Shown here in pieces: positions 39,526 through 41,905 of a stretch of DNA of 64,000 bases. The stretch comes from Tabrizicola sp. (GTDB taxonomy: Bacteria; Pseudomonadota; Alphaproteobacteria; Rhodobacterales; Rhodobacteraceae). The notes under the pieces are model-generated. The model was not told the origin of the DNA. It did not search any database and saw only the letters and a program-made list of their open reading frames with translations. The translations under genes and the position numbers were made by a program. Position 1 is the first letter of the stretch. Every line of letters begins with the position of its first letter. The stretch covers positions 115,929-179,928 of the forward strand of contig NZ_JAEULP010000088.1 of NCBI RefSeq assembly GCF_016792905.1, in the 5' to 3' direction.

Positions 39526-39626
39526 CCTTGGCCGAAATATCCCCGCCGGAGGCATCGACGCGCGGCAGGCCGGGCGTCTGGTCCGCGGTAGCGCCGCCCG
39601 AGGGGCTCGATGCCCCGAGGGCGGCT
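39526..39626. repeat. Dispersed intergenic motif, copy C, and interrupted hairpin before secG
   Basis: CCTTGGCCGAAATATCCCCG with GCCGGAGG resembles copies at 16827 and 31364. A hairpin follows: GCCGCCC-GA-GGGGC (39593-39606) pairs with GCCCC-GA-GGGCGGC (39612-39625), interrupted by a tandem GA/GA mismatch. Confidence 0.5.
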
Positions 39627-39707
39627 CCCCCGCCGGGAACCCTTGCGCCCCGGCCCCCTTCCGCCTAGATAGGCGCGTCAGCCGCCAGAAGCCCGCCGGA
39701 GCCTGCC

Positions 39708-40112
39708 TTGGAAAACGTCGTCCTCACCATCCACCTGATCCTCGCGCTCCTTCTCATCGGCGTGGTGCTCCTGCAGCGCTCCGAAGGTGGCGGGCTCGGC
39801 ATGGGTGGCGGCGGCGGCACGATGTCCGCCCGGGGCGCGGCCACGGCGCTGACCAAGCTGACCTGGATCTTCGCCTTGGCCTTCATCGTCACCTCGATCA
39901 CCCTGACCATCCTGTCCGCCCGCGGCGGTGATGTCGGCTCGGTGGTCGACACCGCGACGACCGATGCCGCGACCGAGGCTCCGGCGACCGAAGCCCCGGC
40001 CACGACCGGCGGCGGGCTTGCCGGGACCGACCTGACGCTGCCCGGCACCGCCACGGCGCCTGCCGCCCCGCCTCCGGCCGATGCGCCCGCCGCACCGCCC
40101 GCCAATCCCTGA
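39708..40112 (+). CDS. secG: Preprotein translocase subunit SecG
   Basis: 134-residue component of the SecYEG channel. Two membrane helices (VVLTIHLILALLLIGVVLLQ and LTWIFALAFIVTSITLTIL) flank the conserved RSEGGGLGMGGGGGTMSARG loop. A long Ala/Pro/Thr tail follows, common in Rhodobacterales. The start is TTG at 39708 with GGAG six bases upstream; no ATG fits. It is upstream of pyrG, which has its own promoter. Confidence 0.9.
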   Translation: MENVVLTIHLILALLLIGVVLLQRSEGGGLGMGGGGGTMSARGAATALTKLTWIFALAFIVTSITLTILSARGGDVGSVVDTATTDAATEAPATEAPATTGGGLAGTDLTLPGTATAPAAPPPADAPAAPPANP

Positions 40113-40167
40113 TCCCACAACTGCTTGCCTGCCCTCCGACCGTGCCCGCATGATCTAGCGGGGGGCG

Positions 40168-40196
40168 TTGCCTATTCCAGCGGGAGTCGCTATATC
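40168..40196 (+). promoter_or_regulatory. pyrG promoter (TTGCCT-N17-TATATC)
   Basis: -35 TTGCCT at 40168-40173 and -10 TATATC at 40191-40196 are spaced by 17 bases. The -35 hexamer is identical to that of the SOS promoter at 20273. Transcription would begin near 40203, about 59 bases before the TTG start of pyrG. Confidence 0.55.
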
Positions 40197-40256
40197 TCGA
40201 CTCCCGTGGTGCCGCGATTCCACCTGTCCCGAATCGCGCTCAATGACACGGGAGTC
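40181..40256 (+). promoter_or_regulatory. pyrG leader: palindromic operator and alternative stems
   Basis: CGGGAGTCG (40181-40189) and CGACTCCCG (40198-40206) form a 9-base inverted repeat around the -10. The right arm can also pair as GACTCCCGTG (40199-40208) with CACGGGAGTC (40247-40256), which holds the Shine-Dalgarno GGGAG. An 8-base stem CGCGATTC/GAATCGCG (40213-40220 with 40231-40238) lies between. So the same sequence recurs three times and could act as a repressor operator, as an RNA switch, or both. Confidence 0.6.
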
Positions 40257-40261
40257 CCGCC

Positions 40262-41905
<1,644 letters not shown>

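What the first reader, a model, noticed from the sequence alone, without database searches (positions are those of the whole stretch)
40168..40262. pyrG leader with a palindrome over the -10 and an alternative stem over the ribosome site
Seen directly: CGGGAGTC occurs at 40181, inverted at 40199-40206, and again at 40249-40256. The first pair is a 9-base inverted repeat around a TATATC -10. The second and third can form a 10-base stem hiding the GGGAG ahead of the TTG start, with an 8-base hairpin between. pyrG control in Gram-positives uses slippage attenuation; I know no described pyrG operator or switch of this form in Alphaproteobacteria. Either a repressor site plus a third half-site, or an RNA switch, would be new.
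Basis: partly seen in the sequence, partly recalled or inferred. Interest (0 to 1): 0.75.

Follow-up and report, generated by a model that had tools for sequence, protein, structure and literature searches.

The report
CTP-start switch in pyrG leader
In Rhodobacteraceae bacteria the gene for the enzyme that makes CTP appears to begin its message on a run of C's that can fold back over the ribosome-binding site, which looks like a self-regulating switch needing no regulator protein; many relatives seem to place the same C's directly before a leaderless start codon.

Summary
The three arms are real and unlikely by chance, but they are two different things. (1) The arm at 40199-40208 lies on the predicted transcription start: TTGCCT, 17 nt, TATATC, 6 nt, CCC (40203). 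Its core CCCGUG can pair with CACGGG at the ribosome site (40247-40252). CCCGTG occurs in 135 of 136 distinct Rhodobacteraceae leaders (the exception is a contig-edge artefact) and in 20 of 20 further divergent ones; the partner pairs fully in 130 of 135. Folding gives mean stem probability 0.92 for a C start, 0.27 for a start three bases on, at G. Best reading: CTP-sensitive start-site choice controlling access to the SD, as in E. coli pyrC. (2) The upstream arm is not a conserved operator (exact in 8 of 135 leaders); it holds GAGTC, a GANTC (CcrM) site conserved at that position in 86 of 135. Outside Rhodobacteraceae, 89 of 105 alphaproteobacterial pyrG starts read CC before the start codon, with the -10 ending 8 nt before it in 54 of 89: apparently leaderless pyrG with the same C-first geometry. 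No start site was measured; the CTP response is inferred, and predicted SD release is only partial.

The parts
40168..40173 (+). -35-like element TTGCCT
   Evidence: Sequence; T, T, G at this position in 96%, 99%, 96% of 135 relatives. A strict sigma-70 scan of 40090-40330 reported no promoter.
40181..40189 (+).
   Evidence: Exact arm in 8 of 135 leaders; GANTC near this position in 86 of 135, 6.9 expected
40191..40196 (+). -10-like element TATATC
   Evidence: Sequence; best -10 ends 6 nt before the first C in 91 of 135 relatives and 5 nt in 24
40203..40205 (+). CCC: predicted start positions in high CTP
   Evidence: Seventh to ninth base after the -10; C in 135 of 135 relatives. Start site not measured.
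40203..40208 (+). 5' arm of stem P1 (CCCGUG)
   Evidence: 135 of 136 distinct leaders, plus 20 of 20
40206..40206 (+). G: proposed alternative start in low CTP
   Evidence: Inference; G in 135 of 135 relatives
40213..40238 (+). Internal hairpin P2 (arms 40213-40220 and 40231-40238)
   Evidence: a hairpin of 6 bp or more in 111 of 130 relatives, 83 distinct arm pairs
40247..40252 (+). 3' arm of stem P1 (CACGGG)
   Evidence: Pairs fully with CCCGTG in 130 of 135 relatives
40250..40254 (+). Shine-Dalgarno GGGAG, partly inside the P1 3' arm
   Evidence: Sequence; 7 nt before the TTG start
40262..41905 (+). pyrG, CTP synthetase, TTG start
   Evidence: ORF of 547 aa; 80% or more identical pyrG hits in the family

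Best explanation
The leader is a protein-free feedback switch on CTP synthetase that works like E. coli pyrC. RNA polymerase can start pyrG on the C's (40203-40205) or on the G after them (40206). When CTP is plentiful it starts on C, and the 5' end CCCGUG pairs with CACGGG, covering the Shine-Dalgarno. When CTP is scarce it starts on G, the three C-G pairs over the SD are lost and the SD is freer, so more enzyme is made. Shown here: the sequence, its conservation and position relative to the -10, and the predicted loss of the stem. Inferred: the actual start sites, their response to CTP and the effect on translation. A conserved GANTC site in the promoter spacer suggests separate CcrM/GcrA input (inferred).
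For: CCCGTG in 135 of 136 distinct family leaders and 20 of 20 further divergent ones that do not duplicate them. First C is 6 nt after the best -10 in 91 of 135, 5 nt in 24, close to the preferred start position 7 (passage of PMC5730371). Partner hexamer in the last 45 nt before pyrG pairs fully in 130 of 135, against 8.8% of shuffled 3' regions, although the arms' distance varies. The near-complete pairing begins at the predicted start base: 132 to 134 of 134 leaders pair at each of the six positions, but 33 to 56 of 134 at positions -7 to -2. Of 21 changes in the 3' arm, 17 keep a wobble pair. The three C's never became T, though U-G would still pair, so C itself seems required. Mean P1 pair probability falls 0.92, 0.75, 0.43, 0.27 as the start moves from first C to G (n = 130). 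CC also precedes pyrG in 89 of 105 other Alphaproteobacteria, without such a stem.
Against: No transcription start or CTP response was measured. The strict promoter scan found no sigma-70 site here. Predicted SD accessibility rises only from 0.27 to 0.38 (leader plus start codon) or 0.30 to 0.39 (with coding sequence); in the window the shorter RNA is predicted to form a 4-bp CGGG/CCCG hairpin over the SD, and accessibility there hardly changes (0.40 to 0.41). The P1 core shows no double compensatory change, and its pairing equals what its invariant columns give by themselves. Position 10 is rather far for an alternative start. An A at -3 (90% of relatives) could also be a start, and would leave the stem intact. 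Five of 135 leaders and 2 of the 20 extra ones lack the full partner.
Confidence: 0.6

Rival explanations
1. The stem is a constitutive SD-masking hairpin, or one opened by temperature, a protein or an sRNA; its position at the transcription start is incidental and CTP is not sensed by start choice.
For: Stem and internal hairpin are conserved; the predicted SD release by a shifted start is small.
Against: The 5' arm keeps a fixed distance from the -10 and its C's never change to T; the C's are also kept in relatives that have no stem.
Confidence: 0.2
2. The arms are DNA half-sites of a repressor over the -10 with a third half-site at the SD.
For: Perfect 9-bp inverted repeat around the -10 and a third copy in the window.
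Against: Exact upstream arm in 8 of 135 leaders and exact palindrome in 5 of 135; the other two arms keep complementarity at distances that vary without helical phase (47 to 112 nt to the start codon).
Confidence: 0.04
3. CTP-dependent reiterative transcription (slippage) on the CCC run, as on the G run of B. subtilis pyrG, lowers productive initiation or adds C's that strengthen the stem.
For: Three C's at the predicted start in 135 of 135 relatives; slippage at pyrG is established in B. subtilis (described in passages of PMC4448216).
Against: Outside the family position -3 is C in 47 and T in 46 of 105, so a run of three C's is not kept there; the scan found no terminator in the leader.
Confidence: 0.1
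4. A metabolite-binding riboswitch with P1 as expression platform.
For: A stem over the SD with a hairpin inside it is a common arrangement (recalled).
Against: The interior varies in length and sequence (83 distinct arm pairs among 111 hairpins); no Rfam family reached its gathering score.
Confidence: 0.04

Closest known systems
pyrC (and pyrD) of E. coli and Salmonella: translational control by nucleotide-sensitive start-site selection (recalled; titles seen in the reference list of PMC5730371)
   Same: Pyrimidine gene; C at the predicted start with a G a few bases on; 5' end complementary to the SD; no regulator protein needed.
   Different: Different gene (CTP synthetase), class and sequence; longer leader with an internal hairpin; G three bases after the first C; start shift not shown here.
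pyrG of Bacillus subtilis: CTP-sensitive reiterative transcription and attenuation (passages of PMC4448216)
   Same: Same gene and same presumed signal, CTP; sensing by the initiating polymerase.
   Different: C's instead of G's at the start, no terminator found in the leader, a stem over the SD instead of attenuation.
Leaderless mRNAs of Alphaproteobacteria (375 in Caulobacter, passage of PMC4117421; 171 in S. meliloti, passage of PMC3616915)
   Same: Outside Rhodobacteraceae pyrG has its -10 about 8 nt before the start codon.
   Different: CC directly before the start codon is kept in 89 of 105; whether these pyrG mRNAs are leaderless is inferred.
CcrM/GcrA-controlled promoters (passages of PMC7987155, and PMC3973325)
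   Same: GANTC at a fixed promoter position in 86 of 135; GcrA and a RAMA-domain protein in this genome.
   Different: Methylation and GcrA binding untested; 49 of 135 promoters lack the site; the PMC3973325 text does not mention ctpS, CTP or pyrimidine.

Membership tests
pyrC-type start-site selection | C at the preferred start position with a purine a few bases downstream | tested here: met
   CCCG 6 nt after the -10 in 91 of 135, 5 nt in 24
pyrC-type start-site selection | C-start transcript pairs with the SD region; purine-start transcript does not | tested here: met
   By prediction only: mean stem probability 0.92 against 0.27, n = 130; SD release partial
pyrC-type start-site selection | Start shifts with pyrimidine supply in the cell | not testable with these tools
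   No start-site data for pyrG found in the passages read
B. subtilis-type pyrG attenuation | Run of G at the start | tested here: not met
   CCC in 135 of 135
B. subtilis-type pyrG attenuation | Intrinsic terminator in the leader | tested here: not met
   None found in window 40090-40330
Repressor operator with half-sites | Half-sites conserved among relatives | tested here: not met
   Exact upstream arm in 8 of 135, palindrome in 5 of 135
Known Rfam leader or riboswitch | Match above the family's gathering score | tested here: not met
   Three sub-threshold matches only, in window 39600-40500
CcrM/GcrA promoter | GANTC in the promoter, conserved in position | tested here: met
   86 of 135 against 6.9 expected, 84 of the 86 at -20 or -19; present in the window
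CcrM/GcrA promoter | Methylation-dependent expression | not testable with these tools
   No pyrG expression data seen

The most novel reading that the evidence does not exclude
Across Alphaproteobacteria pyrG is governed by one CTP sensor, the choice of C or a purine as first nucleotide. In most lineages this toggles between a leaderless AUG mRNA (low CTP, well translated) and a CC-AUG mRNA (high CTP, poorly translated); in Rhodobacteraceae the same C-first promoter was kept and the read-out moved to a 5'-end stem over a new SD. CTP-gated leaderlessness would be a new kind of translational control.
Probability: 0.35. Interest if true: 0.87.

Novelty: new variant of a known kind. Interest (0 to 1): 0.72.

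Why it matters
CTP synthetase makes a building block of RNA, and the listings of nine paper searches showed nothing on how Alphaproteobacteria adjust its leader. If right, RNA polymerase itself reads CTP through the first base of the message, without repressor or riboswitch, and one sensor serves two read-outs (leaderless start or SD-masking stem). It gives a sharp, easily tested prediction in tractable laboratory bacteria and would extend start-site selection from enteric pyr genes to a whole bacterial class.

Tried and rejected
Upstream open reading frame from the GTG at the predicted start: the distance to the pyrG start is spread over the three frames (49, 47, 39 of 135), and in-frame stops occur in 50 of 135 only; rejected as a conserved feature.

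Same architecture elsewhere in this genome: a pattern search gave pyrG and two other places, against 2 hits for the reversed control pattern. One search had used a gap one base too short and missed even pyrG.

hemE as a leaderless control gene: start codons could not be settled, so it was not counted.

Published start-site maps: the passages read on S. meliloti, Gluconobacter, Caulobacter, Zymomonas and agrobacteria do not mention pyrG; their tables are in supplements, which were not available. Nine paper searches listed no paper that I recognised as being on pyrG leader control in Alphaproteobacteria; the library is open-licence PMC only and lists were capped, so this is weak evidence of novelty.

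Idea that the start of the Rhodobacteraceae leader is a relic of an older leaderless gene start: suggestive by eye only, not tested.

Full report
What is there. Three copies of CGGGAGTC, one inverted, are unlikely by chance: 5 of 1000 dinucleotide shuffles of 40113-40261 had an 8-mer twice plus once inverted, and 3 of 300 had a perfect inverted repeat of 10 or more. Placing the promoter changes the meaning: TTGCCT (40168-40173), 17 nt, TATATC (40191-40196), 6 nt, CCC (40203-40205). The right half of the 'palindrome over the -10' is the predicted transcription start. A strict sigma-70 scan did not call this promoter (it demands T at the end of the -10); the case for it rests on conservation.

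Rhodobacteraceae. Kinship is given by the tool for the genome-search loci; for the 80 loci it rests on record titles and 82-96% protein identity (one, L038, is titled Hyphomicrobiales). Of 143 loci with a locatable pyrG start, 136 had distinct leaders; 135 carry CCCGTG and the other (L064) is a gene at a contig edge. L006 was dropped because its start region is partly N; it too shows CCCGTG. To guard against a bias to close relatives I fetched the 20 lowest-scoring of the 149 genomes (one broken hit, G343, skipped): 20 of 20 have CCCGTG and 18 of 20 the 3' arm; none duplicates the 136. The first C is 6 nt after the best -10 in 91 of 135 and 5 nt in 24.

The stem. CCCGTG pairs in full with a hexamer in the last 45 nt before pyrG in 130 of 135 leaders (CACGGG 115, CGCGGG 10, TACGGG 4, TGCGGG 1), against 8.8% for shuffled 3' regions. 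The five exceptions are L013, L014, L049, L068 and L238. The distance from first C to start codon varies from 47 to 112 nt. In the 134 leaders with at least five pairs, 132 to 134 pair at each of the six positions; at -7 to -2 only 33 to 56 do, no more than base composition of the columns gives. Position -1 pairs in 131 of 134, as T or C facing the SD's G or A would anyway. Of 21 changes in the 3' arm 17 keep a wobble pair. There is no double compensatory change, since the 5' arm does not vary; the pairing statistics alone therefore do not prove the stem. What argues for it is that CAC beside the SD has no other evident reason to match the start of the leader. An internal hairpin of at least 6 bp exists in 111 of 130 leaders with 83 different arm pairs; 53% reach a stem score of 9, against 11% of shuffles.

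Effect of start position. With leader and start codon folded, mean P1 pair probability over 130 leaders is 0.92 for a start at the first C, 0.75 and 0.43 at the second and third, 0.27 at G. SD accessibility rises only from 0.27 to 0.38, or 0.30 to 0.39 with 30 nt of coding sequence. In the window it hardly changes (0.40 to 0.41), because the shorter RNA is predicted to form a 4-bp CGGG/CCCG hairpin over the SD. The stem is sensitive to the start base; freeing of the SD is predicted to be partial.

Beyond the family. I expected the motif to vanish and found its core in another form. There were 128 non-Rhodobacteraceae alphaproteobacterial rows: 26 loci, 80 next-ranked hits fetched (G207 skipped), 22 loci. 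Of these 121 were distinct and 105 had a clear M-x-R-F/Y start; 16 with another or uncertain N-terminus were set aside (six of these have CC-ATG at or up to 27 nt upstream of the point used). CC stands directly before the start codon in 89 of 105 (-1: C 98, T 2; -2: C 93, T 6). In those 89 the best -10 ends 8 nt before the start codon in 54, against 4.2 expected from shuffles. Lower-scoring hits among the 182 genomes were not examined. Controls: purA in the same class has CC in 3 of 29 rows (3 of 25 if rows without a usable start codon are left out); pyrG outside Alphaproteobacteria has CC in 3 of 19 readable starts of 20 fetched. No control set of proven leaderless genes was available. These pyrG genes look leaderless, with C at positions 7 and 8 after the -10 and the A of ATG at 9. 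C is an uncommon first nucleotide: 148 of 4,590 primary starts in agrobacteria (passage of PMC10469942), 13.7% in S. meliloti (passage of PMC3616915). A plain pyrimidine-before-purine rule (seen in Gluconobacter, passage of PMC5756330) would allow T as well as C.

Mechanism. The simplest account of both forms is that pyrG senses its product through the first nucleotide. Start-site choice depends on initiating NTP concentration, with preference for position 7 (passage of PMC5730371). Translational control of E. coli pyrC by such selection is known (title in that reference list; details recalled; the paper is not held). In Rhodobacteraceae the read-out would be the SD-masking stem. Elsewhere it would be CC-AUG against AUG; that nearness of AUG to the 5' end favours leaderless expression in E. 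coli is the title of Krishnan et al. 2010 (seen in reference lists; paper not held). [quoted passage not shown] None of the CTP-dependent steps has been shown.

The upstream arm. CGGGAGTCG is exact in 8 of 135 leaders, all in the window's genus (22 distinct leaders), and the palindrome in 5, which does not fit an operator. It contains GAGTC. A GANTC site begins 24 to 12 nt before the first C in 86 of 135 leaders, 84 of them at -20 or -19, against 6.9 expected; 49 of 135 lack it. Outside the family 30 of 89 have one in -34 to -12 of the start codon, 6.7 expected. The genome has GcrA and a RAMA-domain protein above cut-off, consistent with CcrM (that RAMA marks CcrM is recalled). GcrA is described as an activator that binds methylated GANTC (passage of PMC7987155), so cell-cycle input to pyrG is plausible but untested.

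Verdict. The class-wide CC-ATG pattern is the most surprising result and would be a new mode if confirmed.

Noticed in passing
40184-40188; 86 of 135 family promoters: GANTC (CcrM methylation) site between -35 and -10 of pyrG, nearly always at -20 or -19 from the first C; the genome has GcrA and a RAMA-domain protein.
   Followed up: partly
40156-40160 (TAGCG); 106 of 135 family promoters: A T[TA]GCG block about 11 bp upstream of the -35, mostly at -47 or -46 from the first C; 11.6 of 135 expected. Function unknown.
   Followed up: no
pyrG starts outside Rhodobacteraceae, among L113-L219 and L252-L273: CC directly before the pyrG start codon in 89 of 105, with a -10 ending 8 nt before it in 54 of 89: apparently leaderless pyrG.
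   Followed up: yes
L121 and L123 (same-class genomes G183, G050): Exceptions: pyrG with a GTG start and a GAGGGG ribosome site close before it, so the leaderless arrangement seems lost there.
   Followed up: no
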